From Cantharellus purpuraceus (lineage: Eukaryota > Basidiomycota > Agaricomycetes > Cantharellales > Hydnaceae), in NCBI GenBank assembly GCA_025174535.1, contig JALBUN010000037.1, positions 17,005 through 81,004 of the forward strand: 64,000 nucleotides of DNA, read 5' to 3'. Under the pieces are notes generated by a model. It saw only the letters and a list, made by a program, of their open reading frames with translations. It was not told the origin of the DNA and made no database searches. The number at the start of each line of letters is the position of its first letter. Within the stretch, counting starts at the first letter, position 1. A program made the translations under genes and the position numbers. Positions 11,859 to 43,259 of the stretch are shown in pieces.

Positions 11859-13718
11859 TATGTTCTTTGGGGGAGCGATTCTCCTAATTATACGCTCCAG
11901 TGATTGAAGTGCAGAAGATGTCACCAAGAGTTGGTGAGAACTTTTGACCACTGGTCAATAATTCCCAGTGGCTGGGATTCTGGAACATAGTCCAGAGGTT
12001 CTTCTTAAACACAGAAGAACCCTTCTTGGGAGTGGCCTTTTGCAGCCACATCCATATGTCCACATTGGACAAGTTCATGGTGCCATCCAACTCCTGTTGG
12101 ATGGCCAGGGGGACCCCATTAGGGTTTACTTGCCACCTCTGTATGAGGGTAAGTGTGTCTACCGGTGTAGTTGATAGAGTGATGATAAGACTCACATTAT
12201 CAGCATGAGCCAGCAGAGTCATTCTCTTGATGACTCTGCGCATTGGTACAGTGTCAGGGTTCATATGACTCAGTTTCTATTTTGAGTACCTTTCTTATCA
12301 CCCCTATCAGCACAGCCTGTTAGGGTGCACTCTCCTATCTCTCCCTATTGTTCCCCTATCTTGGTTCCCCTATTGTTCCCCTATCTTGGTTCCCCTATTC
12401 CTTGCATCGTCTAGTATAAAGACCTTGCCTGGTGCAGCATGGTTTCCTCAGCTTGATCTCTGAGGATATCTGCTGTACCAGCTGGCATTATCTCTTATCG
12501 GCTCTCACTTATTGAGTATCTTGTTGTTGTGGCCTCATCATTCAGCATAGCCCTCACATACAGTCCATTTTGCAATCAGCGTGGCCAATGCCTTTTTATG
12601 GAGTGATATGAACTCTGGAGTGTCCATATCACAGATGTTGAACCAGTCTGCCCTGATGGGGGTGAACTTGTCCAGAGGTTGTGGCAGGTGGCCAGTGACT
12701 GCTCTGGGAGGGTCAGTCACAGTCATGAACCATGGTGCCCATTTGGGGAATGATTTCCCCATATTGGCATGCTTGAGAGCATGCCTGAAATTGTCCCAGC
12801 AATTGCGATAATTTGCACATTGGGCTTCTTCCAGCATCTTCAATGCTGGATCTTTTAAGGTACAGCTGGCATCACTGTGTATTCCTTTTGAAGCTGATCA
12901 ATCTCAGCTTCAATTTCAGATAGGGCAAACTCAAAGAGTTTTCCCAGTTGCTTAGCACCCTTGGGGATGCTAGCCAGGAGGAGACTATGATCATGGTTGC
13001 ATCCCTCCTAAATTGGGTCAGTGTCATCCCAATCTTGACCCTCAAACCCTTGAGGGTCGACCCAAGGCAGTTTGCTCAGGGGATCATCCTCTTTGGTGAG
13101 GTTGATCATTTCCCATGACAATGAAGCCATGGGTTGTGAAGGCATAATGGCAGGCAGTGATTTGCCTGCCGTAGTACATGATAACAATGCTACTGGAGCC
13201 AAGCACACTGTTGTGAGCTTGGTTTTGAACATAGGAGGTGCTCTATCTGCAGCCTCCTTCAGTGTTTTTAACTAATCTCTGAGACGAGTTACTTCAGACT
13301 TCTCATTATCAAGAAGTCCTTCGAGTTCTTGGACCTGTGCAAACAGGTCTGAGTTATCTTTATACATTTTATTGTAGTCTTTACGATAAGGTGTCATGAC
13401 ATCATCTTTGATGTCACATATAAGTTGTGGCCATGCAACTCTTAATGCTCTTTCCACTGAAGCAGTGGAAAGATATAGTCAGCCTCCATTTTGGGCCTTG
13501 ATTAAGTGCGATACGTATGTGTTGCACTTGTTACATCTGTGAGAGTGATGGATGGCAGTGCCACCATGCCATCTGCCAATTTTCCAGGTCATCTCATCTT
13601 AATGACCTCTGATCATATCTGCAGCACTTATTGCAGGTGGTACTGCTGTGGAAGTTTGTTCAACTTCCATTGGATGCTCATCTTGAGCATCCATCATCTC
13701 TCTTCTGGGAGATGACAT
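11859..13718 (-). pseudogene. Gypsy A1 downstream ORF ('ORF-X'), decayed, left arm
   Basis: Reads leftward from ATG 13716-13718. Order of recognisable pieces: EMMDAQDEHPMEVEQTST, then ADMIRGH(stop)DEMTWKIGRWHGG with a C..C pair (RCNKCNTY), VERALRVAWPQLICDIKDDV, a coiled coil (DLFAQVQELEGLLDNEKSEV), a Trp-rich part (CWDNFRHALKH, FPKWAPWFMTVTDPP) and, after a solo LTR at 12252-12558, NLSNVDIWMWLQKATPKKGS. Several in-frame stops. It follows pol in the same orientation after a leader of its own, that is, in the position where env or other accessory ORFs sit. Function unknown. Cut by the duplication boundary. Confidence 0.7.
12252..12558 (-). mobile_element. Solo LTR, 307 bp, TSD TACAG
   Basis: Begins TGTCAGGG and ends CCCTCACA; flanked by TACAG at 12247-12251 and 12559-12563. 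The A2 copy of the same gene is uninterrupted at this point, which confirms insertion. Contains two copies of a 25-bp unit around 12346-12405 (TTCCCCTATTGTTCCCCTAT type). No internal gene. Confidence 0.88.
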
Positions 13719-14059
13719 TTTGGTGGAGGGGGGGTTGTGGTGGTTCAAAGAAGCACCGTTAGCCTTTTACAGCAGAGCTTGAAAATTTTTTATTGAGAAT
13801 TTTTCTGGTGACTATGTCACATGGGTGTAACACAATTAATTATCACTTACCTCTTGCATGCTACCATGAGTAGCACAATGGTAAACTGCTCCCTATGGGA
13901 GCAGTTTTTACTGCTATTGAGCTGCCTGTTGTTATGGCAGCTCTATCCTCATCTAGGAACTACCATTAATTAAGGTAGTTCCTCTTCCTCTCATTGAACT
14001 ACCATCATTGATGGTAGCTCCACTTCTCCCCTTGAGCCCCATTAGATCTTTGGGCTCTG
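13719..14059. other. Hairpin-dense leader between gypsy A1 pol and ORF-X
   Basis: No gene. CT/AC-rich tract just ahead of the ORF-X start and a run of perfect short inverted repeats (CTGCTCCC/GGGAGCAG, AACTACC/GGTAGTT, GCTACC/GGTAGC). Likely 3' UTR of pol plus promoter of ORF-X. Confidence 0.5.
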
Positions 14060-14337
14060 TATAAATGTGTATCTTAGTTCACACTGTTACACAGAACTCA
14101 ACCAAGTATATTGGTTGGGTGATGTGCTGTACAGTGTGGTAGTTACCTAAGTTCTGCCTCCTACATGTGGACCCACACATGTACTTGGGTCCACTAACTT
14201 ACATAATAACTATACATATGCACCCTATGGGTGCATATATCTATTAAGAAGACAGCATTCCTTAATGGAATGCTGCATACATTAATTATGACTATATAAC
14301 TACATACTATAGTAAGTAAGTACCCTGGGTACTTACA
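14060..14337 (-). mobile_element. 278-bp short interspersed element, TSD CTCTG
   Basis: Mirror of 43588-43865, where the element starts TGTAAGTACC and the host sequence CAGAG is duplicated on both sides; the equivalent site at 21890 is uninterrupted. It is itself packed with hairpins (GGGTGCATATG / CATATGCACCC type). Other copies: 17959-18228, 39697-39966, part at 47930-48176. No open frame. Ends lack clear inverted repeats, so SINE or tiny LTR cannot be separated. Confidence 0.7.
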
Positions 14338-14389
14338 CTCTGTCTCTCTGAGAACTACCATTTATGAGGTAGTTCTCACACTCAAATCA

Positions 14390-14664
14390 CCCCTCAAAGC
14401 TCTAAATAATTGTCTAGAGCTTCTAGGTCCTTACACAACATGTAAGGTTCCTAGGTGATGTCTCCCAATGTCCATAGAACTTGAAATTCAAGTTCTTTAT
14501 TGCTTATCCATTGATGAGTGATGATTTCATCAACAAGCCACTCTTGCTCATTGTTGTTTCCAAAGTCATAAAATGACTTTGCTTCCTGTTTAAGGAATCT
14601 CATCTCATTATTTGACACATACAGTCAAATGAGACTGACATGGAATGTAGGCATAATGCATCTA
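14390..14664 (-). pseudogene. Gypsy A1 pol 3' end (integrase tail, chromodomain-like), left arm
   Basis: Mirror of 43260-43535. Reads IMPTFHVSLI, FYDFGNNNEQEWLVDEIITHQ, LEFQVLWTLGDIT, CKDLEALDNYLEL: the usual end of this Agaricomycete gypsy polyprotein, where a chromodomain-like fold follows the integrase. Contains stops. Separated from the integrase core by the solo LTR 14670-15493. Confidence 0.75.
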
Positions 14665-14669
14665 CTAGT

Positions 14670-15493: not shown

Positions 15494-15498
15494 CTAGT

Positions 15499-17971
15499 CA
15501 GTTCTGGTGGCAGTTCTAGTGTCATCATTGAAGCTTTATTATGGGCTTCAATTACTTTATAGGGCCTGATAAACTTGGGCACTAGTTTGTTGGTTCTACC
15601 TTAGGTAGAGTCAAGTTCTTCATTGAGAGGTAGACCTTGTCACCTCTCTGGAAGATTGAACCTTTCTGATGTTTCTTATTGGCATGAAATGTCTGAATGA
15701 CACAACTTTCTATGATTGCATTGTGCATTGCTAGCAGGTTCATTTGAGCCTGCTGTGCAAATTGTTTGACACCCTTGAACTTGGTGTCATTGTTTATAGG
15801 CATGCCTATTCTAGGCATATACCTGTAGTTAAGCTCAAATGGAGTAAACTCCATTGTTGAGCTTATGTTGGAGTTTAGTGTGAACTCCACCATTGGACAC
15901 TTATGTGCCCAATCTTTCTGATCACTTTGTACAACTATAAGAAGTATTTGGCCAATGGAATGATTTGCTTGTTTCTTCACTCTATCTGTTTGTGAATGGA
16001 ACACTGTGGACATGAGGAGTTTCACTCCTATTATCCACTGTAGTTCACACCAAAAGATAGATGTGAATTTTGAGTCTCAATCAGACACGATTGAGTCTGG
16101 TACACTGTGAAGGTGTACAACTTCTCTAATGAATAGCCATGCTACTCCTTTGACTGTTACATGCATATCTGTAGGTATTATATGTGCCTGTGATGTGAAG
16201 TGATCTATGACTACCAGTAGGTAGTCATAGTCATTTGATTTTGGTAATGGACCCATAAAGTCCATATCTATTGATTACCAGGGTCGTTCCAGTACTGACA
16301 AGCTATGAAGGAGCCCTATGGGTTTCTTCATACTGTCTTTATTCATTTGGCACTTTGTGCATGAAGTGCAGAATGATTCAACATCAGTGGCCATGCCTGG
16401 CCACCAGTACAACTGTTAAATGTAATTCATGGTCTTTAGTTGACTAAAATGGCCAACTACTTGGTGCACATAATCAATTATTATCTTGACCAGCTTCCTC
16501 CCCTTCAGGAATGCTGAGCAGGGTATACAACATCACATCTGTATATATTTTTGGTCCATATTAGACCATCACATATGCCAAATCATGCATGCTCTTTTGG
16601 TGCTTCCAGCACCTTAGAAAGGACAGTATCCTTTCTATATGCACCTCATACAATCTGCATGAGGTTGATCCCATGCTTGACATGGGATCACAATAGTGTT
16701 CCATCATCATCTGATGACATCACTCCAATGTCCTCTATTTCTTTAGAGGAATTAGAATTATTATTCAATGATTCTGTTTGAACATGGAGTGCTTCAGCTT
16801 CTAGCACTCTGTTCTCTTTTTTCTCAAGCAGTTGCCTTTGGGTAACTGCTGCTGTCCTGATCTCAATGAACTGTTCCATAGAGAGCAGTTCTCCTTCAGG
16901 GTCGAGATGTACATCTGCACTCATGTAGATGTAGTTGGGATGACTCTCTGTTGAGGAGTCATCGGCATAGTAGCATGATAGACAATCTGCTACTTTGTTC
17001 TCTACCCCATCTACATGCAGGGTAGTAAAGTTGAAATGGGATAAGAACTCCCACCATCTAATCTGTCTAGGAGACAGGTTCTTTTGAATCTTGAAATATT
17101 TGAGACCCTTATGGTCAGTTACTAGGACAAACTTTCATCCTAGTAGCTTATCTTCCCATTTCTCAAGCACAGCTATAGTCTCATGCTTGTGGGTCTTATA
17201 GTGCTACACAGCAGCACTAAATTTCTTGAATAGGAATCTGGCAGGCCAACAGGTCTGCCAATCTTTTCCTTGTCCATAGACGGCTCCGACTCCAGTTTTG
17301 GAGCTGTCAGTAATAATTCAAATAGTATTGGGGTTATTAACATCAATGGACTTCAATATTGGAGCCCTACATGCTAGGAGCTTAATACTTTTGAAGCATT
17401 TCTCTAGCAATGGCATCCATAAGAATAAACAATTATTACAAGCACAACCCAATAATGGGGTAATGTATGCAGTTATATCTGGCATATAGTGTGCCAGATA
17501 CTGCACTAGTCTAAGGAAATATTGGACTTTGTAGTATGACCTAGGTTGTCTCCACTCTCATATTTGCTGCATTTTATCAGTGTCTGCATGCATGCCTTGG
17601 TCATCTATTAGGTGACCAAGGCAATCCATACTTGTTGAGTATAGATTGATCTTATCCTTGCTCAATGCCATCTTGGGTATATCTGTCAGCCTGACATGTA
17701 TCTGTTTGTATGCCTCAGACATATCAAGTTTAGATTAATATGTACAGTGGGCAACATTGTATCTGATGTTGTTCTGATTGGGGTAGGGCATTATATCCTT
17801 CACTGTATTGTCATTCTGTTTGTGCAAGTCAAACACAGTGTGGAGCTTCCCATTTTTCTTGGGAACACATAGCATTGGTACAGCCTGTCGGGCTGTAGCT
17901 GGTACCCACCACTTAGCAGTGGTGTATCGCAGAACTTTCTCTGAAAGTTCTGCTTGGCTGTAAGTACCCAA
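15499..17971 (-). pseudogene. Gypsy A1 pol: RT, RNase H, integrase, decayed (left arm)
   Basis: Reading leftward from 17971: RT start (AKWWVPATARQAVPMLCVPKKNGKLHTVFDL), then KLDMSEAYKQI; the stretch that should contain the YxDD box is missing, with the frame jumping to LYSTSMDCLGHLIDD. RNase H follows (IITDSSKTGVGAVYGQGKDWQTCWPA, HETIAVLEKWEDKLLG, VTDHKGLKYFK), then integrase (MDFMGPLPKSNDYDYLLVVIDHF, VSD.DSKFTS). The catalytic Glu position reads VKKQAN instead of the expected acidic residue. Numerous stops. Dead by three criteria. Confidence 0.85.
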
Positions 17972-18228
17972 GGTACTTACTTACTATAACATATAAGTAC
18001 AATTAATATATGCAGCATTCCCTTAAGGAATGCTGTCCTCTTGGTAGATATATGCATCCATAGGGTGCATATGTATAATTATTATGTAAGCCAGTGGACC
18101 CAGTACATGTGTGGGTCCACTTATAGTGGGTGGAACTTAGGTAACTACCACACTGTACAGCACATCGCCCAACCAATACACTTGGTTGAGTTCTGTGCAA
18201 TGGTGTAAACTAAGGCACCTAATAACAC
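17959..18228 (+). mobile_element. Second copy of the 278-bp element, left arm
   Basis: Shares the hairpin-rich body of 14060-14337 (TGTAAGTACC end at 17959, CTAAGGCACC end near 18226) in the opposite orientation. It sits where the A1 RT frame begins, so it separates the polymerase from whatever lay upstream. Target duplication not recognised. Confidence 0.6.
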
Positions 18229-18713
18229 TTTTTTGAACTTCCAAAGAAAGAATCAATTGATTCTTCCTCATTATTAAAGTTTTCTAGTCAATACTAGAAA
18301 ACCAGCTGTTGCTGGTGTACAGACATATACCAACCCCCAGTCGCTCATATAAGTGAGCAACTAGTAGACTAACTTAGTTAGCCTATAAAGATAGAAGAAA
18401 GAAAGGAGTCATCATAATGATGACTCACAGTAGAGTGAGTCATGCTGGCAGTGCACAGGATATCATAAATGATGAATGGCAGCATGTAGCCAGCAGCAGA
18501 AGCTCCAAGGAAGGGGAGCTAGACCTTAGAAAAGTCGCAGGGACTTCTCATAAGGAAGACTCTAGAAGAGAGTTGCCACAATCGTGAGATCACACAATAG
18601 ATCATCTGTCAAACAAGAACCCTTCATCAAGTGGTTCTTTGATTAGATAAGAAAGGAGGAGATAGTCATCCACTGTCTCCAATGTTCCTAAAGGAAAGGA
18701 ATGTACTCAATAT
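18229..18713. other. Junction of gypsy A1 and A2; 5' leader of A2
   Basis: No gene. This is where the minus-oriented A1 and plus-oriented A2 meet head to head. Hairpins are frequent (GACTCAC/GTGAGTC near 18421-18443). LTR ends for this family were not recognised. Confidence 0.4.
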
Positions 18714-20700
18714 ATGAGCACAAGTAGAAGTAGCAATACTTCTACTAGGGAATTGTACAGCATGGAGCAGCATGAAACCCACAGGTCAATCACAAGATTG
18801 ACTGAACAACTCATGCATAATCAACATGAGATGAAGAGCATTAGTGAAGCTAGTGCTCAGGCAGCTAAGATGGCTACTGAAGCAGGGCATGCTGCCACTA
18901 CTATGGGGCAGCAAATAGCAGAGCTAGGAACAATGTTAAAATTGCTCCAAGAGAACTCTGAGCAACACAAGTTGCATTGCTAAAGATTGGATTCTTGACA
19001 AGAATCTGAATCCAGAGAGTCTGGACCTCCCTGGGGTGAGAGGGTCCAATTGAATGATCGGTTAGACAGAGGAAATGAAATTCCCTCAATGGAGGGAATT
19101 AGAGACCCAGTAATCCCAGTGAGGCAAGGATTACCGATCCAGATTGAAGAGGAAACCCCTCAATCCATGACAAAGGAGCTTGATCAAGAGATCAAGCCAT
19201 GGAAATAATGAGAAGTTGAGGCTTCTCATAAACATAGATTAGCTCTCAAATGGAAGGCTAAACATGCAGAGCAGGAGCTTGGCCACCTGTTTAGAGAGCA
19301 GCAGCCCCAGGAAGAGCTCAATGTGGCTGTTGATTTAAATCGACAGTCGCGACATGCGCTGAACAGTTATCAGCATATACAAGCGGTGAGCCTTTCAGGA
19401 GACACCTGCCATGAGCAACAAGATACCAAATGGGTACCTCAAGAAGACATTCCCCATAACAGGGAACAATCAGTGCCATTGACTCTAGAAGGTCAAGGCA
19501 TACTGTATCAATTGGACACAATTGATCCTATCAATGGCATTACTCACATGGTGTGAGTAGCCATAGTTGATAATAGAGACACAGACCCAGAGAAGTCTGT
19601 ACTTGCCAAGGTGGACATTAAAGTATCGCCTCCTGAGCAATATGCAGGAGGTGCAGATCTTGAAGAGTTTAAGATCTTTGTAGCAGGTATGCTACAATGG
19701 CTGAAGATGAATAATCTCCTAGGGCCATCAAGTACAAAGTTTCAGCTATTGTACTTAGGCACTCGCCAGAAATAGTTCTACAGGAATGTAGAACACTACA
19801 ACAGGGCAGTCCAAGACTGGACCCTGGAAACTGCAATCCAAGGATTGCAGCATAGATTCCTACACACCCTGACGCATCACCATGCATCAAATAAATTTGA
19901 CTCTGTAATACAGGGTCAAAGGACCATTCATGAATTAATGAATGGCCTCGATAAGTATGTGGGCCACATGATAATGCTGCCAGATGCATACACATACAGG
20001 AAGAGGTTTATAACCACAATGTGTGAACCTCTGAGACAAGAAGTCCTCAAGAAGGGCTTCAATGCCAAGTTTAGCAGTATAGCAGTTGTACAAAACTGCT
20101 CAAATGATAGAGGAAGTGATGCAATACCATCAACAGTATGCGACACCTGGAGAATGTGACTAATGCATCCTCCTCAACCCATAGACCAGTAGTCAATAGA
20201 ACTACTGGTATGATGAATATGGGGAGTTGACCCATGCCCCAAGGATGTGTGTCAAGGTTGGAATCCCATAATGGAAGCTCCAGGTCCAATTCCAACAATT
20301 ACCTTTTCAAGGGTAATTATCAATCGAAGCCACCAGCACACACAAGTGGTGATCGATTGAACAATGTTACTAGTAATGCGTGACAGGTATGAAAACCTTC
20401 ATGCTAGAGCAACCCATTGCACTGCAATTAGCGTGCATTGGGAGCAGGAGTACCATAAATTATGGTACTCACACTACCATAAAGTTTGGTAGTTGGGACA
20501 TTGAAGAATATTTCAATGTCACCAACATTGAGTATTACAGTGTAATACTTGGTACCCCATTCCTATGAAGGCTAGGAATATGCCTGGACTTCAATGGCCC
20601 AGGCTGAATCATGATGGGAACTGAAGAAGTCCCCACCAATGAAGAGCATAATACTGATGCTCTTCATACCCCATCATGGGGTATAAACTCAATGCAAAGA
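18714..20700 (+). pseudogene. Gypsy A2 gag and protease, decayed (left arm)
   Basis: 18714-18983 encodes the N-terminal gag helix region (SMEQHETHRSITRLTEQL ...). 19640-20158 encodes the retrotransposon gag domain (LEEFKIFVAGMLQWLKMNN, WTLETAIQGLQHRFL, GLDKYVGHMIMLPDAY, KRFITTMCEPLRQEVLKKG). 20380-20700 is the aspartic-protease region (TGMKTFMLEQPIALQL, IKFGSWDIEEYFNV, VILGTPFL). The DxG active-site segment itself is not present before 20380 in this copy. Stops break it repeatedly. Gag would pack RNA; protease would cut the polyprotein. Confidence 0.8.
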
Positions 20701-20953
20701 AGGAGTATTGGTGTGAATAAATGATGCCAAGGGGGTAACTCTAAACACAAGCTACCCACAATGCAGTCCTTCCTAAAAAAAGGACTAGACTTGGTAAAGG
20801 ACAAATAAGAGCACAAGGTGAATAGCTTCGTCTCGTGAAGGATCAAGCTTACATGGCTGGTCAGATCCCTCAGTTGAGGGATCAATAGAAAGAAAAGTAC
20901 GCTGACCTATTTGGCAGCATACCCTTAGAACTTCCCCCATTTAGGGAAGTTAA

Positions 20954-21467
20954 TGTTATGACTATATTCATTAACACCCAGATCCCCGTCCGATCCCCTC
21001 AGATCCCCGCACATATGAAATCTATACTCCATTTGGAAACCGCTACGTCTCCATTTTCCTGTCCGATTGTCACTGCCGATTCCGCCCATCTGTCTCTGGT
21101 TCTGATTGATGCATCAGCATCACCATAGGAACCTGGACATCCGTCCCCATCGGACTCGGACATACTCATGTAAGGCCATCGGCCTCGGAGACCCATCACT
21201 GGAGTAATTATTATTAGATTTTGAATATGTATTTAAGTTGCCAACTGGGGACTTCATTCCCCAGTTCGAATATCGAATCATGCCTAGCTCCTAAGTCCGA
21301 TCCTAACTCTGTAAGTCGTACTCCGTCTCTGAAATCTCGGACACCGGTATTAGTGAGGGCGCAGCACATAAGCTGAAGCCAAGTCCGTTCCGACCCCCAT
21401 GACATGCTCCGACTCCGACCCAACCTCCGACCCAATCTCCGACCCCAATCGGTACTAGTGCGTAACA
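20954..21467 (+). mobile_element. Solo LTR of the chromovirus family, 514 bp, TSD GTTAA
   Basis: TGTTATGACTATATTC ... TGCGTAACA, flanked by GTTAA at 20949-20953 and 21468-21472. It splits the A2 RT start: LPPFREVN before and VNHKINLMDPDKQ after. Same family as 29080-29579 and 60860-61379. Carries a CG-rich, TCCGAC-repeat 3' half. Confidence 0.93.
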
Positions 21468-21472
21468 GTTAA

Positions 21473-21835
21473 CCACAAGATTAATCTCATGGATCCTGAC
21501 AAGCAAATACATTATCACTTGTCTAAGTGTCCAGAGCACTAAGCTTTGACAGTGACACTGGAACTGCCACCAGAACTGACTAGTAGGTGCATTATGCCTA
21601 CATTCCATGTCAGTCTCATTCAACTGTATGTGCTGAATGATGAGGTGAGATTCCCAAAATGGGAAGCGAAGTCATTTTATGACTTTGGAAATGATGACAA
21701 GCAGGAGTGGCTTGTCAATGAAATCATCGCTCATCAATTGAATTTCAAGTTCTATGGACATTGGAAGACATCACCTGGGAACCTTACATGTTGTATAAGG
21801 ACCTAGAAGCTGGAGACAATTATTTAGAGCTTTGA
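21473..21835 (+). pseudogene. Gypsy A2 pol remnant with large internal deletion (left arm)
   Basis: Starts with the first residues of RT (HKINLMDPDKQIHYHLSKCPEH) and at about 21540 jumps to the pol 3' end (LTVTLELPPELTSRCIMPTFHVSL, YDFGNDDKQEWLVNEIIAHQ). RT core, RNase H and integrase core are deleted, so A2 could never move by itself. Confidence 0.75.
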
Positions 21836-22270
21836 GGGGTGACTCAAGCATGAGAACTACCTCATAGACAGTAGTTCTCAGAGAGACAGAGCCCCAAAGA
21901 TCTAATGAGGCTCAAGGGGGAGAAGTGGAGCTACCAAGAATAAAGGTAGCTCCTAGTGGGATGCAACAAAGAGCTACCATCAATGATGGCAGCTCAACAA
22001 GGGGAGGAGGAACTACCTCAATTAAATGGTAGTTCCTAGATAAGGATAGAGCTACCATAACAACAGACAGCTTGATGGTAGAAAAAACTGCTCCCCTAGG
22101 GAGCAGTTCACTGTCATGCTACTCATAGTAGCACGAAAGGGGTAATTGATAATTAATTGTGTTACACCCATGTGACATAGTCACCAGAAAAATTCTCAAT
22201 AAAGAATTTTCAAGCTCAGCCATAAAAAGCTAGTGGTGTTTCTTTGAACCATCACAACCCCCCCATCAAA
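21836..22270. other. Hairpin-dense leader between A2 pol and ORF-X
   Basis: Counterpart of 13719-14389 without the 278-bp insertion. Perfect stems follow one another (GAGCTACC/GGTAGCTC, GAACTACC/GGTAGTTC, CTGCTCC/GGAGCAG). Ends in a C-rich tract before the ATG. Confidence 0.5.
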
Positions 22271-24200
22271 ATGTCATCTCTCAAAAGGGAGATGATGGAT
22301 GCTCAGGATGAGCATCCAATGGAAGTTGAACAAACTTCCACAGTGGCAGCACTGGCAACAAGTGCTGCAGATATGATCAGAGGTCATTAAGATGAGATGA
22401 CCTGGAAAATTGGCAGATGGCATGGTGGTGCTGCCATCCATCACCCTCATGGGTGCAACAAGTGTGACACATATGTGTCACACTTAATCAAGGCCCAAAA
22501 TGGAGGCTGACTATATCTTTCCACTGCTTTGGTGGAAAGAGCATTAAGAGTTGTGTGGCCATGACTTATATGTGACATCAAAGATGATGTCACAACACCT
22601 TATCATGAAGACTACAATAAGATGTACAAGGATGACTTGGACCTGTTTGTGCAGGTCCAAGAACTTGAAGGACTTCTCAACAATGAGAAGTCCAAAGTAA
22701 CTTGTCTCAGAGATGAGTTAAAAACACTGAAGGAGGCTGCTGATAGAGCACCTCCTACATTCAAGACCAAGCTCACAATGGTGCACTTGGCCCCAGTAGC
22801 ATTGCTATTGCCTGCCATTATGCCATCACAGCCCATGGCTTCATCATCATGGGAAACTATCAATCTCACTAAAGAGGATGATCTCCCAAGCAAATTGCCT
22901 TGGGTCGACCCTTGAGGGTTCAAGGGTCAGGATTGGGATGACACCAACCCAATCTGGGAAGGATACGACCACGATCATAGTCTCCTCTTGACTAGCATCC
23001 CCCAGGGTGCTAAGCAACCAGGTAGACTCAAAGAGTTTGCCCCATCAGAAATCAAAGCCGAGATTGATCAGCTTTGAAAGGAATATATGGCTGGTGATGC
23101 CAGCCATACCTTAAAAGACCCAGCATTGAAGACACTGGAGGAAGCCCAGCATACGAATTATTGCAAATGCTGGGACAATTTCAGGCATGCTCTCAAGCAT
23201 GCCAATGCAGGAAAATCATTCCTCAAATGGGCACCATGGTTCATGACTGTGACTGACCCTCCCAGAGCAGTCACTGGCCACCTGCTGTGACCTCTGGTCA
23301 AGTCCACCTCTATCAGGGCAGACTGGTTCAACATCTGCAATATGGACACTCTGGAGTTCATATTGCTCTATAAAAAGGCATTGGCCACACTGTCCGCAGA
23401 ATGGACTGTACTGATGTGCAGAGTCATCAAGAGAATGACTCTGCTCTGCTGGCTCATGCTGATAACATGAGTCTTATCATCATTCTACCAACCACACCGG
23501 TAGACACACTTACCCTCATACAGAGGTGGCAAGTAAACCCTAATGGGGTTCCCCCAGCCATCTGACAGGAGTCAGATGGCACCATGAACTTGTCCAATGT
23601 GGACATATGGATGTGGCTGCAAAAGGCCACTCCCAAGAAGGGTTCTTCTGTGTTTAAGAAGAACCTCTGGACTATGTTCCAGAATCCCAGCTACTGGGAA
23701 TTATTGACCAGTGGTCAAAAGTTCTCACCAACTCTTGGTGACACCTTTTGCACTTCAGTCACTGGAGCGTATGATTGGGGGAATTGCTCCCCCAAAGAAC
23801 ATACTTAATTAGAGCTTGTGCTCTGGTTTAGGTGATCGGGAGGCATCACCCCCAATTGTGCTGCTATATTAGAGGAGTTTGCTAAATGCATCACCTCTGG
23901 AGCAGCATTTAACCAACCCACCAGGGTTGGTAAGTGAAAGCAGGAGACTCATGGAGTCTCTCAAGCAGCTCATAAAGCTGCTAAATGCTCTCTTACTGAG
24001 CATTTAGGTCACGATCAACTTAATTGTGACCTTGATTGGCATGCTGCAGTAGCAATTGCATCCTCCTCATCCATTCAAGTGGATGAGAATACCACAACCA
24101 CATTGGGGATGACTGAGAGCCATCTCCCTCCAGAGCCATATGAACAAGATGACTATATGGACACCAACTCATTGAAACAGCTTCATAAGGAGCTGTTTAA
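22271..24200 (+). pseudogene. Gypsy A2 ORF-X, decayed (left arm)
   Basis: Same gene as 11859-13718, here uninterrupted by the 307-bp LTR. Begins MSSLKREMMDAQDEHPMEVE. The best-preserved block, 22622-22915, encodes a coiled coil (DLDLFVQVQELEGLLNNEKS) and TINLTKEDDLPSKLPWVDP; later CWDNFRHALKHANAGKSF, KWAPWFMTVTDPPRAV and NLSNVDIWMWLQKATPKKGS. Stops at about ten places. No catalytic motif recognised; N-terminal C..C pair GCNKCDTY could bind metal. Truncated at 24200 by fusion to an LTR. Confidence 0.7.
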
Positions 24201-28339: not shown

Positions 28340-28466
28340 TGTTATGACTATATTCATTAACACCCAGATCCCCATCTGATCCACTCAGATCCCCACACAT
28401 CTATACTCCATTTGGAAACCATCACGTCTCCATTTATCTGTCCGATTGTCACTGCCAAATCTCACC
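28340..28466 (+). mobile_element. 127-bp stub of chromovirus LTR at inner edge of left arm
   Basis: TGTTATGAC start at 28340, preceded by GATAC and a purine-rich AAATGGAGAGA, the likely polypurine tract of the chromovirus. Ends at CTCACC where the spacer starts. It is the mirror of the last 127 bp of the full LTR at 29080-29579. Confidence 0.9.
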
Positions 28467-29079
28467 AAATTCCACCAAAACACACCTATGCAGTGCATTT
28501 CTGTAGTGCAACAAGATTCCCAACAAGCAGGGAATCACGACAGCTGCATATAGCTGCTGTCAGCATCAATAGATTGGCCAAACCTATGTATAATCATAGG
28601 AGTCAACAGAAGTCAACAGCTTGACCTGATAGGCTGCATATAAATAATAAAACAATCTCCAGATATTGGAAGATTGGGGGAACACTTGCTCACTGTCTAT
28701 TAGACAATGGGAGTGAGGGGATAATGATATCCCCTGAATTCACATGTGTGACAGGTATGAAAACCTTTGCACTAGAGCAACCCATTGCACTGCAATTAGT
28801 GTGCATTGGGAGCAGGAGTACCATAAATTATGGTACTCACACTATCATAAAGTTTGGTAGTTGGGACATTGAAGAATACTTCAATGTCACCAATGTTGAG
28901 TATTACAATGTAATACTTGGTGCTCCATTCCTATGAAGGCTAGGAATATGCCTGGACTTCAATGGCCCAGACTGAATCATGATGGGAACTGAAGAAGTCC
29001 CCACCAATGAAGAGCATAATACCAACACTCTTCGTATCCCATCATGGGGTACAAACTTAATACAAAGAAGGAGTATTGG
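28467..29079 (+). pseudogene. Gypsy A protease fragment forming the palindrome spacer
   Basis: Not part of either arm. Contains LLDNGSEGIMISPEF (retropepsin active-site segment, D-N-G instead of D-S/T-G), then TGMKTFALEQPIALQL and VILGAPFL, about 90 percent like 20380-20690. It is cut at GAGTATTGG by insertion of the chromovirus LTR at 29080; the uninterrupted sequence is visible near 20700. Confidence 0.8.
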
Positions 29080-29579
29080 TGTTATGCACTAGGTCTGATT
29101 GGGGGTCGGAGGTTGGGTCAGAGTTGGAGGATACGTTGTGGGGGCCAGCACGGACTTGGCTTCAGCTTATGTGCTGCACCCTCACTAATACCGGTGTCCA
29201 AGATTTCGGAGACGGAGTACAACTTAGAGAGTTAGGATCAGACTTAGGAACTAGGTGTGATTCGATATTTGAACTGGGGAATGAAGTCCCCAGTCAGGCC
29301 ACTTAAATACATATTTGAAATCTAATAATAATTACTCCAGTGATGGGTCTCCAAGGCTAACGGCCTTACATGAGTATGTCTGAGTCCAACAGGGATGGAT
29401 GTCTGGGTTCCTATGGTGATGCTGATGCATCAATCGGAACTGGAGATGGATGGGTGAGATTTGGCAGTGACAATCGGACAGATAAATGGAGACGTGATGG
29501 TTTCCAAATGGAGTATAGATGTGTGGGGATCTGAGTGGATCAGATGGGGATCTGGGTGTTAATGAATATAGTCATAACA
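29080..29579 (-). mobile_element. Chromovirus LTR, complete, 500 bp, across the spacer/right-arm border
   Basis: TGTTATGCAC ... GTCATAACA. 29080-29452 is spacer, 29453-29579 is right arm. On the minus strand the sequence before it is AAATGGAGAGATAC, a plausible polypurine tract, and further upstream lie the antisense gene and the chromodomain, so it is best read as the 3' LTR of that element. Confidence 0.9.
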
Positions 29580-29692
29580 GTATCTCTCCATTTAAGGCTG
29601 AGCCCCTGAGGCCTCATGTCCATGGATTGAATAGGTGAGACGGTTGGGTGCAGTTGGAGTTATACTGGGGGTCTGGAGACATATAAAAGGAC

Positions 29693-31967
29693 ATGATTGA
29701 GGTCTTATCCTTAACAATGTCAAATCCTTTGGCAAACATGAGTGTGGCGGAGCTTGAGCAGTTGCTCCTGGCCCGACGGAAGGAAGAGGAAGAGGAGCAG
29801 AGACAGAGGGAGGAGGAGGAGGCAGAATGGAGACGGAAGGAGGAGGAGGAAGCAGAATGGAGACAGAAGGAGGAGGAGGTGGTGGAACGGAGACAGAAGG
29901 AGGAGGAGGTGGTGGAACAGAGACAGAAGGAGGAGGAGGAGGTGGAACGGAGATGGAAGGAGGAGGAGGTGGAGCGGAGACGGAAGGAGGAGGAGGAGGT
30001 GGAACAGAGACGGAAAGAGGAGGAGGAGGTGGAGCGGAGACGGAAGGAGGAGGAGGAGGAGCGGAGATGGAAGGAGGAGGCAGAGATGGGATGGAGAAGG
30101 AAGGAGGAAGAAGCGAAAGCCGAGTGAGCCTGCAGGGTCAAGGAACTTGTGGCCGCAATGAAGGCTGTGAGACTGAAGGAAGTGGAAGAGCAGGCGCACG
30201 AGCTAGAAGCCGCCATGGAGGTAGAGGAGGAGGTGACCGGGGCAGGGGCGACTAGTCACCTGGGGAGTCTGAGTGTGCCAATACCAGGCAGGTGTTAAGA
30301 AAAGATATGGAGGGGTGTTGTGGGTAAGTGTAAAATGATGGTGAGGGATGGTGGCGAAGTAGATTTTGAATAGGGGAGCAATTACTGCAAGGATGCAGAT
30401 ATATGCAGGGTCGATGGAAAGGTGTTGTTTAGTAGAGTAATTTTACCAAATATCAGAATATTTGGTTAAGAACTGGGACTTCTGCAAAATATTTGAGCAG
30501 AAATGGGAATGGCAACACTTCGAAAAAGTGTTTGCTTAATAGAAATGGATGTAATGATCCAAATCATTTGTAATTTGAGATAGCAGTAGTTAATGCAATA
30601 TCCTAATAGGATATGCAAAAGATTTCCAATAGAATAGGTCGTTTAGGAGTTATTCCAGGAACGACAGAAAGTTGACACAAGCTGTTTGTTTGCAGCTTGG
30701 AAGGGATTGAGAATAGTGAATCTCCTCATTGATACTCGTACACAGTTGTAGTTAATATACAATTTGACAATAACATGATAAAAAAGCCTTTTAGTAAGAT
30801 TGAAACATATGATAAAAGAAATGATGTGGATACTGATAATATGTGATGTCATGGGGAAAAACTTTTTATAGAGAAAGGAGTTTTTACCCGTTTGACTTGA
30901 GGTTTATGACGAATGAAAATCATCATAATACCACCCTTTTCAAGTAGTAGCCACCCCCGTAGAACGAAAGGATGGCTCACAAAATAAAATCGAAAAACAC
31001 CTTCTCCTCATCCCTTAATCAAAAAATTCCCAAACTTTTCACAACTTTTTCTTATCATAAAACTCCCCCTTCTTGCTCCAATAGATTGTAATATTACTTG
31101 AATAAGTTCTTGACAGCAGGGACCCCTGAGGTTGCCATTATCTTGATTATGCAGACAGAGTCAACCCGTCCAACAACTATCCCTACGATGGACTTGCCGT
31201 TACGTCTGTGGTCACAGCCATTATTTGCAGTGGGTGTGGCTGAGGAAGATGACGTGGCAGAGGTGGAGAGGGTGGAGGTGGAGGTGGACCCTGATGCCAA
31301 TATGGAGCTTGACGCAAATGCGGAGCCAGAGGTGGGTGTGGATGTTGGGACAGATATGGAGCCAGATCCAACCTCGAATTGCTATGAGAAGATGGCTTGG
31401 GTAGGTGCGGTCAAAGCTCGCAAAAGAGCAGAGCTCTATGCTGCTACCACCAAGAAGAACCTCGAGGTTGCGATCTTTTCATTGAAGGCACACCCAAGTG
31501 CTGATACAGAGAAGTGGGAGGCGGACCAGAGGGTCATATGGTGCAAAGCAGAGAAAGAATCAGAAGGTCGTCCAACCAAAAAGCCACAGATGGAGATGGG
31601 CACTGTGGCAGCTGGGGGTAGCAGTGTCGGATCGGAAGGAGCAATGACCAGTGCAGGTACGGGGTGTGTCTCTGCACCCAACAGTATCGTGGGCCAGCTT
31701 ATCTGGCTGGTTAACCTGCAGTCGGAGCACCTCTGGCGGATGGAGGGGTTGTCAGTGGACTTGGTGAAGACAATGAAACAGAAGGAGGTTCTCAAGGGTC
31801 AGCAGACTGCTGAGTTGCGTCAGCTGCGGAAGTTCATGGCCCCCTTGGATGAGGATTCAGATATGGGGGATGAGAAAGATTGGGTGTTGGATGTAGAGAG
31901 TGATGATGAGTCGGAGATGGAGCCTGAGGTAGACAAGGGGAAGGGAAAAAGGAAACACAATGTATAA
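29693..31967 (+). pseudogene. Antisense accessory gene of the chromovirus, right arm
   Basis: Mirror of 25953-28226. A TATA-like ATATAAAAGG at 29681-29690 precedes two in-frame ATGs (29693 and 29717); the second, MSNPLANMS, lies about 30 bp after the TATA and looks the more natural protein start if transcription begins a little upstream. Internal TGA after the E-rich tract, a solo LTR at 30293-31115 and a shift at the insertion site inactivate it. The C-terminal 289-aa frame is still open to 31967 and converges on the chromodomain frame ending at 32132. Confidence 0.6.
30293..31115 (+). mobile_element. Solo LTR, 823 bp, TSD GCAGG, right arm
   Basis: Mirror of 26805-27626. GCAGG repeats at 30288-30292 and 31116-31120. 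The paired copy differs by a few bases, including one A in a run. Confidence 0.92.
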
Positions 31968-32131
31968 CATAAAAAATGAAAATGAAAATGAAAATGATTG
32001 TAATATTTCGGAGCAGAGAAAAATAGGGTGGAGTGAGATTCCTTCAGAGTTTGGGGTAGACTTGTAATTTCCTTTGTGACTTTGTAATGAATGATTATGC
32101 GAAATAATATAATTGGCATCAATAATGGAAC

Positions 32132-32474
32132 TTAAAGATTCATAAGAGGCCCAGGTTTGTTGAGATAAGCAGAGTGAAAATTGGACATGGATTTGGATGT
32201 GTAATCAAGTTCGGACACAGAAATCCATGAGGACTCTTCATCGGTGCCTTTGTATCCAGTCCATTTGACTAGGTACTGGAGCTTGCACTTGTATTGACAA
32301 TTGATCTTCAAGTCCAGGATCTCAGTTATCTCATATTCGTTATCTCCTTTGATGATGATCGGAGGAGGTGGAGGTTGTGTGACCAGAGATCTCATTTGTA
32401 GTAGCAGGTTTGAGCATTGATATATAGAAGACCAGATGAACTGCTTGGAAGTGGTCCAGGAGGTGGAGGGTGAA
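32132..32474 (-). pseudogene. Chromovirus chromodomain, right arm
   Basis: Mirror of 25452-25794, with the same YLVKWTGYKG and NFHSAYLNKPGP motifs and the same truncation by an LTR at its 5' side. 165 bp separate its stop from the end of the convergent accessory gene. Confidence 0.85.
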
Positions 32475-33724
32475 TGTATGGGAACCACCTTTTCCCTATT
32501 AAATCCTATTTATGCAGCACCAATGTGCTATACTTCGCTTTTCCATTCCTAAATATCAGCATATATTTGGTGCTTGTACCTGGTATGGACTTATTCAAAT
32601 ATTCTCTATTTTGCCATATTTTTTTTAGGAATATTCCATGCAGAACTCGTCCCAGAATGATTTATTTCTGCTGTGCTACAGTTGTGGACCCATAGACACC
32701 CACAAACCTTCGCACAGCCGGCTCTCCCCCTTTGGACCAGGCATTTGGCCTGAATTCAAGCTCAGATGTCTCTGATCAATAAATATTCTGTAACTTGACA
32801 ATCACAGCCTCTCAGGGCACTATGTTCCATGGAGATCATCATCTGAGATGTGGCTATCCATGGCTGTCTAAACCAGTGCAGAAAACAGGGTGGATACCCT
32901 TCTTTTTGCCTGATCAGTGCCTAGTTCAGGGATCAGATCAGGTGATTGCCTTGAAATATTCTACCCCTTTCCATAACATTCTAGCTGTTTCCTTCTATTA
33001 TTAGATAGAATATTCCAGAACCATTATTCAGCTCCTGATCAGTGTTATTTCAGTGATCAGAACCTGTGATTGGCTTGGAATATTCTACCCCTTTCTTCCA
33101 CCTTCCACAACCTTCCAGTAGTTTCCATCTATTGATAGGTAGAATATTCCAGAAGCATTAGTCAGCTCCTGTAAATACAATATATAAGGAGGTCATTCTG
33201 CCTCTAAAACAGTAATATATTCTACCCATCTTCTGCACACCAGTGTGACTAGAGTGACATACAGTGTCATCCTCTATATCTTAGTAACTGTTGATTGTCC
33301 AGTTCAAGGGTCACTTACAGTTGTGTAACTGTACTTGATTGCACTTGAAGTAGTGATATTCCTGCTTTAGGCATGAGTGTACTATCTGCCTCACATGACT
33401 ATGAATCTACAGGGTGAGATTATCTGTCAATAGTCCTGCAGTTAGTGCTCTTGTTTAAGTTACTAGTGTGTACTGCCTTTGCAGAGCATTAGAAGCTTGA
33501 ACTTGTGTGAAGCAGTTGCTAGACTACTTCACACATTGCTGTTACCCACTTCAGAGTGTCACTGGTTGGATGGTTGAATTCATCCACCTACTTCCTTTAG
33601 CCTCTAAGTGCATTCCCTCATTTTAGAATATCTGGACCCCTAAGCATCCATGAACTCTAGACTTTGGAAGTCTTATTCATTTCTTGCTGCTAAGAAACAT
33701 ATTACTTTTCTGCATATAGTCTGC
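32475..33724 (-). mobile_element. Truncated copy of the 1.43-kb LTR, right arm
   Basis: Mirror of 24201-25451: starts TGTATGGGAACC and is fused to ORF-X at 33724. Confidence 0.8.
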
Positions 33725-35654
33725 TTAAACAGCTCCTTATGAAGCTGTTTCAATGAGTTGGTGTCCATATAGTCATCTTGTTCATATGGCTCTGGAGGGA
33801 GATGGCTCTCAGTCATCCCCAATGTGGTTGTGGTATTCTCATCCACTTGAATGGATGAGGAGGATGCAATTGCTACTGCAGCATGCCAATCAAGGTCACA
33901 ATTAAGTTGATCGTGACCTAAATGCTCAGTAAGAGAGCATTTAGCAGCTTTATGAGCTGCTTGAGAGACTCCATGAGTCTCCTGCTTTCACTTACCAACC
34001 CTGGTGGGTTGGTTAAATGCTGCTCCAGAGGTGATGCATTTAGCAAACTCCTCTAATATAGCAGCACAATTGGGGGTGATGCCTCCCGATCACCTAAACC
34101 AGAGCACAAGCTCTAATTAAGTATGTTCTTTGGGGGAGCAATTCCCCCAATCATACGCTCCAGTGACTGAAGTGCAAAAGGTGTCACCAAGAGTTGGTGA
34201 GAACTTTTGACCACTGGTCAATAATTCCCAGTAGCTGGGATTCTGGAACATAGTCCAGAGGTTCTTCTTAAACACAGAAGAACCCTTCTTGGGAGTGGCC
34301 TTTTGCAGCCACATCCATATGTCCACATTGGACAAGTTCATGGTGCCATCTGACTCCTGTCAGATGGCTGGGGGAACCCCATTAGGGTTTACTTGCCACC
34401 TCTGTATGAGGGTAAGTGTGTCTACCGGTGTGGTTGGTAGAATGATGATAAGACTCATGTTATCAGCATGAGCCAGCAGAGCAGAGTCATTCTCTTGATG
34501 ACTCTGCACATCAGTACAGTCCATTCTGCGGACAGTGTGGCCAATGCCTTTTTATAGAGCAATATGAACTCCAGAGTGTCCATATTGCAGATGTTGAACC
34601 AGTCTGCCCTGATAGAGGTGGACTTGACCAGAGGTCACAGCAGGTGGCCAGTGACTGCTCTGGGAGGGTCAGTCACAGTCATGAACCATGGTGCCCATTT
34701 GAGGAATGATTTTCCTGCATTGGCATGCTTGAGAGCATGCCTGAAATTGTCCCAGCATTTGCAATAATTCGTATGCTGGGCTTCCTCCAGTGTCTTCAAT
34801 GCTGGGTCTTTTAAGGTATGGCTGGCATCACCAGCCATATATTCCTTTCAAAGCTGATCAATCTCGGCTTTGATTTCTGATGGGGCAAACTCTTTGAGTC
34901 TACCTGGTTGCTTAGCACCCTGGGGGATGCTAGTCAAGAGGAGACTATGATCGTGGTCGTATCCTTCCCAGATTGGGTTGGTGTCATCCCAATCCTGACC
35001 CTTGAACCCTCAAGGGTCGACCCAAGGCAATTTGCTTGGGAGATCATCCTCTTTAGTGAGATTGATAGTTTCCCATGATGATGAAGCCATGGGCTGTGAT
35101 GGCATAATGGCAGGCAATAGCAATGCTACTGGGGCCAAGTGCACCATTGTGAGCTTGGTCTTGAATGTAGGAGGTGCTCTATCAGCAGCCTCCTTCAGTG
35201 TTTTTAACTCATCTCTGAGACAAGTTACTTTGGACTTCTCATTGTTGAGAAGTCCTTCAAGTTCTTGGACCTGCACAAACAGGTCCAAGTCATCCTTGTA
35301 CATCTTATTGTAGTCTTCATGATAAGGTGTTGTGACATCATCTTTGATGTCACATATAAGTCATGGCCACACAACTCTTAATGCTCTTTCCACCAAAGCA
35401 GTGGAAAGATATAGTCAGCCTCCATTTTGGGCCTTGATTAAGTGTGACACATATGTGTCACACTTGTTGCACCCATGAGGGTGATGGATGGCAGCACCAC
35501 CATGCCATCTGCCAATTTTCCAGGTCATCTCATCTTAATGACCTCTGATCATATCTGCAGCACTTGTTGCCAGTGCTGCCACTGTGGAAGTTTGTTCAAC
35601 TTCCATTGGATGCTCATCCTGAGCATCCATCATCTCCCTTTTGAGAGATGACAT
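33725..35654 (-). pseudogene. Gypsy A2 ORF-X, right arm
   Basis: Mirror of 22271-24200, with the same stops. Best-preserved block 35010-35303 (coiled coil, then LTKEDDLPSKLPWVDP). Confidence 0.7.
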
Positions 35655-36089
35655 TTTGATGGGGGGGTTGTGATGGTTCAAAGAAACACCACTAGCTTTT
35701 TATGGCTGAGCTTGAAAATTCTTTATTGAGAATTTTTCTGGTGACTATGTCACATGGGTGTAACACAATTAATTATCAATTACCCCTTTCGTGCTACTAT
35801 GAGTAGCATGACAGTGAACTGCTCCCTAGGGGAGCAGTTTTTTCTACCATCAAGCTGTCTGTTGTTATGGTAGCTCTATCCTTATCTAGGAACTACCATT
35901 TAATTGAGGTAGTTCCTCCTCCCCTTGTTGAGCTGCCATCATTGATGGTAGCTCTTTGTTGCATCCCACTAGGAGCTACCTTTATTCTTGGTAGCTCCAC
36001 TTCTCCCCCTTGAGCCTCATTAGATCTTTGGGGCTCTGTCTCTCTGAGAACTACTGTCTATGAGGTAGTTCTCATGCTTGAGTCACCCC
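35655..36089. other. Hairpin-dense leader, right arm
   Basis: Mirror of 21836-22270. No gene; short perfect inverted repeats throughout. Confidence 0.5.
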
Positions 36090-36452
36090 TCAAAGCTCTA
36101 AATAATTGTCTCCAGCTTCTAGGTCCTTATACAACATGTAAGGTTCCCAGGTGATGTCTTCCAATGTCCATAGAACTTGAAATTCAATTGATGAGCGATG
36201 ATTTCATTGACAAGCCACTCCTGCTTGTCATCATTTCCAAAGTCATAAAATGACTTCGCTTCCCATTTTGGGAATCTCACCTCATCATTCAGCACATACA
36301 GTTGAATGAGACTGACATGGAATGTAGGCATAATGCACCTACTAGTCAGTTCTGGTGGCAGTTCCAGTGTCACTGTCAAAGCTTAGTGCTCTGGACACTT
36401 AGACAAGTGATAATGTATTTGCTTGTCAGGATCCATGAGATTAATCTTGTGG
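36090..36452 (-). pseudogene. Gypsy A2 pol remnant, right arm
   Basis: Mirror of 21473-21835: RT start fused to the pol 3' end, core domains deleted. Confidence 0.75.
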
Positions 36453-36457
36453 TTAAC

Positions 36458-36971
36458 TGTTACGCACTAGTACCGATTGGGGTCGGAGATTGGGTCGGAG
36501 GTTGGGTCGGAGTCGGAGCATGTCATGGGGGTCGGAACGGACTTGGCTTCAGCTTATGTGCTGCGCCCTCACTAATACCGGTGTCCGAGATTTCGGAGAC
36601 GGAGTACGACTTACAGAGTTAGGATCGGACTTAGGAGCTAGGCATGATTCGATATTCGAACTGGGGAATGAAGTCCCCAGTTGGCAACTTAAATACATAT
36701 TCGAAATCTAATAATAATTACTCCAGTGATGGGTCTCCGAGGCCGATGGCCTTACATGAGTATGTCCGAGTCCGATGGGGACGGATGTCCAGGTTCCTAT
36801 GGTGATGCTGATGCATCAATCAGAACCAGAGACAGATGGGCGGAATCGGCAGTGACAATCGGACAGGAAAATGGAGACGTAGCGGTTTCCAAATGGAGTA
36901 TAGATTTCATATGTGCGGGGATCTGAGGGGATCGGACGGGGATCTGGGTGTTAATGAATATAGTCATAACA
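36458..36971 (-). mobile_element. Solo chromovirus LTR, 514 bp, TSD TTAAC, right arm
   Basis: Mirror of 20954-21467; TTAAC at 36453-36457 and 36972-36976. Differs from its partner by isolated substitutions, for example in the GAGATTTCGGAG region. Confidence 0.93.
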
Positions 36972-42426: not shown

Positions 42427-42431
42427 ACTAG

Positions 42432-43255: not shown

Positions 43256-43259
43256 ACTA

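What the first reader, a model, noticed from the sequence alone, without database searches (positions are those of the whole stretch)
18400..24200. Gypsy family A is saturated with short perfect hairpins, in coding and non-coding parts alike
Seen directly: within 20449-20683 alone there are perfect stems at 20449-20469 (AGTACCATAA/TTATGGTACT, 1-nt loop), 20497-20520 (GACATTGAA/TTCAATGTC), 20531-20549, 20559-20579, 20641-20665 (GAAGAGCAT/ATGCTCTTC) and 20667-20683 (TACCCCA/TGGGGTA). The same density continues through gag, pol, leader and ORF-X of both A1 and A2. In pol, 42061-42094 is a nested hairpin with a 15-bp stem broken by one 2-nt bulge inside integrase codons. The copia element (1-4649), the AT-rich island and the chromovirus 3' end do not show it by eye, so it is not regional composition. 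Such spacing (stems of 6-10 bp, loops of 1-15 nt, every 20-30 bases) is not a known property of gypsy elements to me. Possible causes: quasi-palindrome correction by template switching during reverse transcription, or selection for a highly folded RNA genome (packaging, or double-stranded RNA that blocks or feeds silencing).
Basis: partly seen in the sequence, partly recalled or inferred. Interest (0 to 1): 0.88.

Follow-up and report, generated by a model that had tools for sequence, protein, structure and literature searches.

The report
Retrotransposon lineage saturated with perfect hairpins
A lineage of old virus-like jumping genes in a fungus-like genome is tiled with small perfect hairpins, protein-coding parts included, and the pattern looks more like repeated self-copying during replication than like selection for folded RNA.

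Summary
One arm of the window's A sequence (10,996 nt) holds 240 perfect hairpins (stem 6+, loop 1-15) against 42.1 +/- 6.8 in 200 dinucleotide shuffles, and 93 against 2.95 for stems of 8+. Synonymous-codon shuffling gives 17.5 against 71 observed. A1 and A2 are not independent: they are mirror arms of a 16.6-kb inverted duplication. Genome copies replicate the result: 21 of 21 aligned gag copies have 17-23 per kb, 2.9-4.0 expected; subfamily B shares it. Other gypsy-type loci and random loci lie at or near chance. Stems are perfect tracts that stop abruptly, both strands fold about equally well, G-U is not preferred overall, and the excess is confined to short loops. At four hairpins, six copies carry the exact reverse complement of the loop, a template-switch footprint. 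Dead copies show no detectable arm-to-arm repair; gag evolved under protein selection. Best reading: template switching tied to this lineage's reverse transcription; selection for RNA folding fits worse. A-B covariation is weak. Closest printed case found: nematomorph mitochondrial coding palindromes.

The parts
17959..18223 (+). LTR-like piece at the 5' side of A1; 34.0 hairpins per kb, 4.9 expected
   Evidence: 87.5% match to 14073-14337; LTR identity is inferred
18224..18671 (+). leader of A1; 17.9 hairpins per kb, 3.7 expected
   Evidence: name by position
18672..20375 (+). gag-like block of A1; 18.2 hairpins per kb, 3.5 expected; the 21-copy alignment was made here
   Evidence: name by position and reading, no Pfam hit for the piece tried
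20376..20953 (+). protease-like block of A1 with the quoted hairpins; 24.2 per kb, 3.6 expected
   Evidence: protease name from recalled motif, no Pfam hit for the related piece tried
20448..20470 (+). example hairpin, 11-bp stem, 1-nt loop
20497..20520 (+). example hairpin, 9-bp stem, 6-nt loop
20639..20667 (+). example hairpin, 11-bp stem, 7-nt loop
21468..21970 (+). middle block of A1; 17.9 hairpins per kb, 4.3 expected
21971..23404 (+).
   Evidence: no Pfam hit for the pieces tried
23405..24200 (+). end block of A1; 27.6 hairpins per kb, 4.4 expected
15494..17950 (-). RNase H/integrase part of the second, opposite A element in the same arm; 21.2 hairpins per kb, 3.9 expected
14338..14669 (-). 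middle block of the second A element; 27.1 hairpins per kb, 3.9 expected
14073..14337 (-). LTR-like piece inside the second A element, probably a solo LTR; 37.7 hairpins per kb, 6.9 expected
   Evidence: inferred from its interrupting a block continuous in A1
11859..14072 (-). 3' part of the second A element; 21.7 hairpins per kb, 3.4 expected
28466..28962 (+). A-like protease-region fragment in the spacer of the inverted duplication
   Evidence: 28744-28962 matches 20376-20594 at 94%
29453..46068 (.). mirror arm of 11859-28466 (99.8%), carrying the same A sequences again
60859..63830 (-). subfamily B copy with hairpins at positions shared with A

Best explanation
The A/B lineage of Ty3/gypsy-type LTR retrotransposons acquired and kept a genome tiled with local perfect inverted repeats (about one hairpin centre per 31 alignment columns in gag; most stems 6-11 bp, loops mostly up to about 16 nt). 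The likely cause is short-range template switching during its replication, most likely reverse transcription. The growing strand folds back, or jumps between the arms of a small imperfect hairpin, uses one arm as template for the other and returns. This makes the stem perfect and now and then inverts the loop. Purifying selection on the proteins filtered the events while the element was active. After insertion the pairing was no longer kept up, and copies decayed by independent substitutions. Shown here: density, lineage specificity among the loci sampled, perfect abrupt stems, strand symmetry, locality, inverted loops, protein constraint during A-B divergence, no detectable arm-to-arm repair in dead copies. 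Inferred: that the copying took place in the reverse-transcription cycle, and that it, rather than selection for structure, made the hairpins.
For: Stems end abruptly: pairing resumes for 3 bp beyond the terminal mismatch in 0 of 139 stems of 7+ bp in the window copy and 2 of 407 in 21 gag copies; the terminal mismatch is G-T in 24 and A-C in 31 of 139, with 14.3% and 18.4% of non-pairs expected. Single mismatches inside stems: G-T 46, A-C 48 of 118. Sense and antisense folding z-scores are about equal in five parts. The excess is in loops of 1-16 nt; 26-80 nt is at chance. Loop inversions: L038 and L054, L050 and L053, L048, and B copy L060, at four hairpins. Lineage specificity: bases of 20 random loci unlike A/B have 3.31 hairpins per kb; 3 of 3 relatives at 40-44% integrase identity are at chance. 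Fixed A-B differences 12, 9, 32 at codon positions 1, 2, 3. No coupling detected in stems of dead copies.
Against: Covariation between A and B is weak: 3 pairs fixed for a double change against 7 one-sided, and compensated cells 4.4%, within the 1.5-4.7% of slid controls. A second scan of 25,304 aligned columns outside the gag set found no loop inversion. There is no codon-phase bias (16/22/16 of 54). Loop inversions could come from host replication after insertion; the inverted copies are few. Nothing here observes reverse transcription. The loop-closing mismatch in the window copy is G-T in 27 of 111 (24%, 14.3% expected), though in 21 gag copies it is A-C 108 and G-T 34. A-C mismatches outnumber G-T within the family (309 to 169), which nothing here explains.
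Confidence: 0.5

Rival explanations
1. Selection for a compactly folded genomic RNA (packaging, protection from silencing or nucleases) fixed and kept the hairpins; coding constraint was met by codon choice.
For: Hairpins occur over the whole element including LTR-like and coding parts, are shared by A and B at 23 of 29 listed positions, stem columns differ less between A and B than others (16 of 282 against 37 of 378), and upkeep seems to stop at insertion, as it would for an RNA function. The folding energy is well below shuffles.
Against: No overall G-U preference, antisense folds about as well as sense, pairing does not resume beyond a mismatch, and loops above about 20 nt are not enriched in the window copy.
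Confidence: 0.22
2. Template switching in host DNA replication or repair, not reverse transcription, made the hairpins while the element sat in the genome.
For: Template switching between inverted repeats is known from host replication (PMC8604942, PMC8794818, abstracts seen). Loop inversions are found in single genomic copies.
Against: The same host replicates copia, other gypsy-type and random sequence that is at or near chance. Facing polymorphisms in dead copies are not detectably coupled (45 pairs, mean phi 0.054 against 0.005, P 0.10).
Confidence: 0.15
3. Hairpins are tiny inserted palindromic elements.
For: Selfish coding palindromes exist elsewhere (Rickettsia, mentioned in the discussion of PMC6649704).
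Against: The hairpin sequences differ from each other. Most of the best integrase homologues align over about 97% of the piece, and residues in stems match homologues no worse than the rest (0.72 against 0.54).
Confidence: 0.03
4. Chance, base composition or codon usage.
For: A mild excess also exists in the AT-rich island (48 against 32.6 +/- 5.7).
Against: Dinucleotide and synonymous-codon shuffles fall far short.
Confidence: 0.01

Closest known systems
Coding palindromes in mitochondrial genes of Nematomorpha (PMC6649704; abstract and discussion read)
   Same: Perfect inverted repeats inside protein-coding genes, with no excess of imperfect ones, protein kept; the authors put forward repeat conversion by template switching as a possibility
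   Different: Those repeats are long (up to 284 bp) and mitochondrial, with a codon-phase preference; here stems are short, tiled over a multi-copy nuclear LTR retrotransposon, and no phase bias was found
Template switching between inverted-repeat arms in yeast (PMC8604942; only the start of the abstract seen) and in RNA genes (PMC8794818; abstract and opening lines)
   Same: Arm homogenisation and spacer inversion are named as its outcomes; reverse-complement copies that make or mend perfect stems
   Different: Reported as single events under host replication; here a whole element lineage is saturated and the host's other sequence is not
Ty3/gypsy LTR retrotransposons
   Same: RNase H and integrase homology, gag-RNase H-integrase order, LTR-like pieces
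   Different: The other gypsy-type loci sampled in this genome are not hairpin-saturated

Membership tests
Ty3/gypsy LTR retrotransposon | RNase H next to integrase in one element, integrase downstream | tested here: met
   RT_RNaseH PF17917 at 16691-17134 minus (E 7.8e-7); integrase piece 15585-16076 minus has no Pfam hit itself but its homologues carry PF24626 and, in one listed case, PF00665
Ty3/gypsy LTR retrotransposon | Reverse transcriptase domain of the gypsy type in the element | not tested
   RVT_1 was searched genome-wide but not placed in an A copy
Ty3/gypsy LTR retrotransposon | Long terminal repeats at both ends | tested here: inconclusive
   LTR-like pieces at 17959-18223 and 14073-14337; no complete element with two LTRs was delimited
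Nematomorph-type coding palindromes | Perfect repeats in coding sequence without an excess of imperfect ones | tested here: met
   Pairing resumes in 0 of 139 window stems and 2 of 407 gag-copy stems; the 118 single-mismatch stems in 21 copies exceed 23.8 expected, with G-T and A-C (post-insertion type) making 94 of them
Nematomorph-type coding palindromes | Protein sequence kept under selection | tested here: met
   Fixed A-B differences 12, 9, 32 at codon positions 1, 2, 3
Nematomorph-type coding palindromes | Codon-phase bias of the pairing | tested here: not met
   16/22/16 among 54 gag hairpin centres
RNA genome under selection for structure | G-U pairs tolerated more than A-C; sense strand folds better | tested here: not met
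   exception: loop-closing mismatch in the window copy, G-T 27 and A-C 24 of 111
RNA genome under selection for structure | Compensatory substitutions above controls | tested here: inconclusive
   3 fixed double changes; compensated cells 4.4% against 1.5-4.7% in slid controls
Template switching between inverted repeats | Spacer (loop) inversion between intact arms | tested here: met
   six copies at four hairpins, one of them (L050) with a partly decayed stem; none in a second scan

The most novel reading that the evidence does not exclude
A retrotransposon lineage whose own reverse-transcription cycle made intramolecular template switching a main force of its sequence evolution, so that its genome, proteins included, became a near-continuous array of perfect hairpins kept in concert only while the element was active.
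Probability: 0.4. Interest if true: 0.9.

Novelty: new variant of a known kind. Interest (0 to 1): 0.76.

Why it matters
Inverted repeats inside coding sequence are held to be rare because they tie two stretches of protein together (PMC6649704, abstract). Here a multi-copy nuclear element carries them along its whole length, and its many dead copies give a natural record of how stems are made, flipped and lost. If the reverse-transcription reading holds, a copying error usually met as single events shaped a whole retroelement genome, and the use of perfect or covarying stems as proof of functional RNA structure would need a caveat for retroelements.

Tried and rejected
Composition and codon effects: rejected by shuffles. 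Regional effect: rejected, since copies on other contigs have it and neighbours do not. A general property of gypsy elements in this genome: rejected for the loci sampled (L009-L016; L057-L059); integrase matches listed at 51-59% identity were not fetched, and two of them lie beside A copies. RNA-structure selection: disfavoured, not excluded. Repair of stems in dead copies: looked for in facing C/T and G/A polymorphisms, not detected. Within-family pair counts gave A-C 309 and G-T 169, while substitutions are nearly strand-symmetric (C>T 223, G>A 215 outside CpG), so this imbalance is unexplained. A search of viral contigs with the integrase piece found no relative. Codon-phase test: no bias. 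A second scan for loop inversions found none. Literature searches listed no hairpin-saturated retrotransposon; this holds only for those terms and that library, and apart from PMC6649704 and PMC8794818 the papers were seen as listings with the start of the abstract.
Full report
What was checked. The window is contig C37 17005-81004 of an unnamed 40.15-Mb, 50-contig genome. A gene with Pfam DUF6535 at 58037-59422 points to an agaricomycete-type fungus; that this domain is basidiomycete-bound is recalled, not tested. In 1-kb steps, perfect hairpins (stem 6 or more, loop 1-15) reach 11-26 per kb in 11-25 kb and 33-46 kb, where shuffles over the whole window give 1.3-6.7. They are near chance in most of 1-11 kb, 25-27 kb, 31-33 kb and 49-60 kb, and moderately raised in 27-31 kb, 46-48 kb and parts of 60-64 kb. 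Over one arm, 240 stand against 42.1 +/- 6.8; for stems of 8 or more, 93 against 2.95. With loops of 3-13 nt the excess over shuffles begins at 4 bp, is largest at 7 bp and runs to 11 bp. Synonymous-codon shuffling of ten open segments gives 17.5 +/- 3.8 against 71 observed; five control ORFs give 26 against 18.0 +/- 4.2.

Anatomy. Each arm carries parts of two A elements in opposite orientation, interrupted by other insertions such as the repeat at 20954-21467, found mostly at 94-96% identity in many places. A copy on contig C1 has the blocks in the order gag (553428-555190), RNase H/integrase (557009-559113), 3' block (559627-561099), all on one strand. RNase H is supported by Pfam; the integrase piece has no Pfam hit of its own but 302 homologues in the protein search, the best at 60-69% identity. 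The names gag, protease and ORF-X rest on position and recalled motifs; no Pfam family hit the pieces tried. The parts measured are all hairpin-rich: LTR-like 34.0 and 37.7 per kb, leader 17.9, gag 18.2, protease-like 24.2, pol 21.2, middle and 3' parts 17.9-27.6, against 3.4-6.9 expected.

A property of one lineage. Three A probes list 50, 54 and 50 matches in the genome, mostly at 83-92% identity; the tool scores only 40 candidates per probe, and some matches are fragments of one copy. I fetched 20 gag copies from the list, chosen for near-full coverage and leaving out the four near-identical places, and aligned them with the window copy. All 21 have 17.2-22.7 hairpins per kb, expected 2.9-4.0 (L043 and L044 are 99.8% identical). 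Subfamily B, about 81% identical to A in gag, has 15-22 per kb in 4 of 4 fetched copies. Three relatives at 40-44% integrase identity are at chance in 3 of 3; matches listed at 51-59% were not fetched. Eight other RT loci have mostly 1-8 per kb, with one 1-kb step at 12. In 20 random 10-kb loci, the 185,913 bases unlike A/B have 3.31 hairpins per kb and the 14,087 bases like A/B have 11.1.

Hairpins are old and shared. In gag, 57 of 78 hairpin centres occur in at least 3 of 21 copies, about one per 31 alignment columns, and 24 of 78 in 15 or more. Of 29 listed positions in about the first 840 nt, 23 are found in both A and B, 5 in A only and 1 in B only; two of the A-only ones lie where the B sequences end. 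Some stems differ on both sides, for example AGTAGAAGTA/TACTTCTACT and AGTAGAGGTA/TACCTCTACT. Strict counting gives little covariation: 3 pairs fixed for a double change, 7 for a one-sided change (5 involving A-C, 2 G-T), and compensated cells 4.4% against 1.5-4.7% in slid controls, while unchanged pairs are 79% against 60-71%. Stem columns differ less between A and B (16 of 282) than others (37 of 378).

DNA-like rather than RNA-like. If folded RNA were selected, G-U pairs should be tolerated and the sense strand should fold better. Single mismatches inside stems over 21 copies are G-T 46 and A-C 48 of 118. Mismatches shared by most copies are 2 T-G, 3 A-C and 3 others of 8. The mismatch that ends a stem is G-T in 24 and A-C in 31 of 139, and pairing resumes in 0 of 139; in 21 gag copies it is G-T 40 and A-C 134 of 407, resuming in 2. 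Against this, the loop-closing mismatch in the window copy is G-T 27 and A-C 24 of 111, a G-T excess over 14.3% expected; in the gag copies it is G-T 34 and A-C 108 of 328. Energy z-scores, sense and antisense, are -3.45/-2.99, -4.31/-4.91, -4.33/-3.79, -3.44/-3.68 and -3.99/-3.88 in five parts. Loops of 1-16 nt are in excess and 26-80 nt at chance in the window copy; in the gag copies a few shared hairpins have loops of 22-26 nt. Loop 0 is 3 against 0.9 expected. Loops of 1-2 nt are about as frequent as chance complementarity at the ends of 3-4-nt loops would give (inference).

Footprints of template switching. Six copies at four hairpins carry the exact reverse complement of the loop of others: L038 (TTGC against GCAA in 8 copies) and L054 (TTGT against ACAA in 9) at one hairpin; L053 and L050 (TCTT against AAGA in 19) at another, L050 with a partly decayed stem; L048 (TCTATTG against CAATAGA in 17); and B copy L060 (TGTTG against CAACA in 5). 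L050 and L053 are not each other's closest copies (0.895 identity), so the flip is recurrent or an old polymorphism. Elsewhere in the 21-copy alignment, inverted 4-8-nt segments are transition-only changes of the CpG-decay type (end of alignment inspected). A scan of 25,304 aligned columns in other A and B pieces found none. Spacer inversion and arm homogenisation are the stated outcomes of template switching between inverted repeats in PMC8604942 (start of abstract).

When it acted. The fixed A-B differences fall 12, 9 and 32 on codon positions 1, 2 and 3 (of 220, 223, 217), so gag was under protein selection while it carried the hairpins. Integrase residues in stems match homologues no worse than the rest (31 residues at 0.72, 131 at 0.54). 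In dead copies, facing C/T and G/A polymorphisms in stems are not detectably coupled (45 pairs, mean phi 0.054; 701 unpaired pairs, 0.005; P 0.10, L044 left out as a duplicate). The upkeep therefore seems to have stopped at insertion. Since other sampled sequence replicated by the same host is at or near chance, I place the process in the element's own cycle, most simply reverse transcription. That last step is inference.

Comparison. The nearest printed case that I found is the mitochondrial coding palindromes of Nematomorpha (PMC6649704, abstract and discussion read): perfect repeats with no excess of imperfect ones, protein kept, template switching put forward. The present case differs in being a nuclear LTR retrotransposon with short stems throughout and no codon-phase bias (16/22/16). 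I rate it a new variant of a known kind. The searches listed no hairpin-saturated retrotransposon.

Noticed in passing
11859-28466 and 29453-46068: Giant inverted duplication, 16.6-kb arms at 99.8%; pieces of the same sequence recur at 99-100% on contig C35 and near the end of contig C1. Real duplication or assembly product is open.
   Followed up: partly
52945-57862: Tandem array of a unit of about 168 bp, 23 copies listed.
   Followed up: no
27773-28174 and mirror 29745-30146: Array of 27-30-bp units, 10 copies of the reference listed; one frame reads as a Glu/Arg/Lys-rich stretch.
   Followed up: no
G000, RT and integrase matches: In-frame stops in many gypsy matches are mainly TGA, and CpG is depleted in gag copies (observed/expected 0.08-0.28), as CGA to TGA decay at methylated CpG would give (inference).
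   Followed up: partly
L026:2129-2291 and 6620-6781: A repeated stretch with several perfect hairpins, not A-like by blastn.
   Followed up: no
42048-42095: Overlapping hairpins that share an arm, as serial copying would give.
   Followed up: no
gag alignment of 21 copies: A-C mismatches in stems outnumber G-T 309 to 169 although substitutions are nearly strand-symmetric; unexplained.
   Followed up: partly
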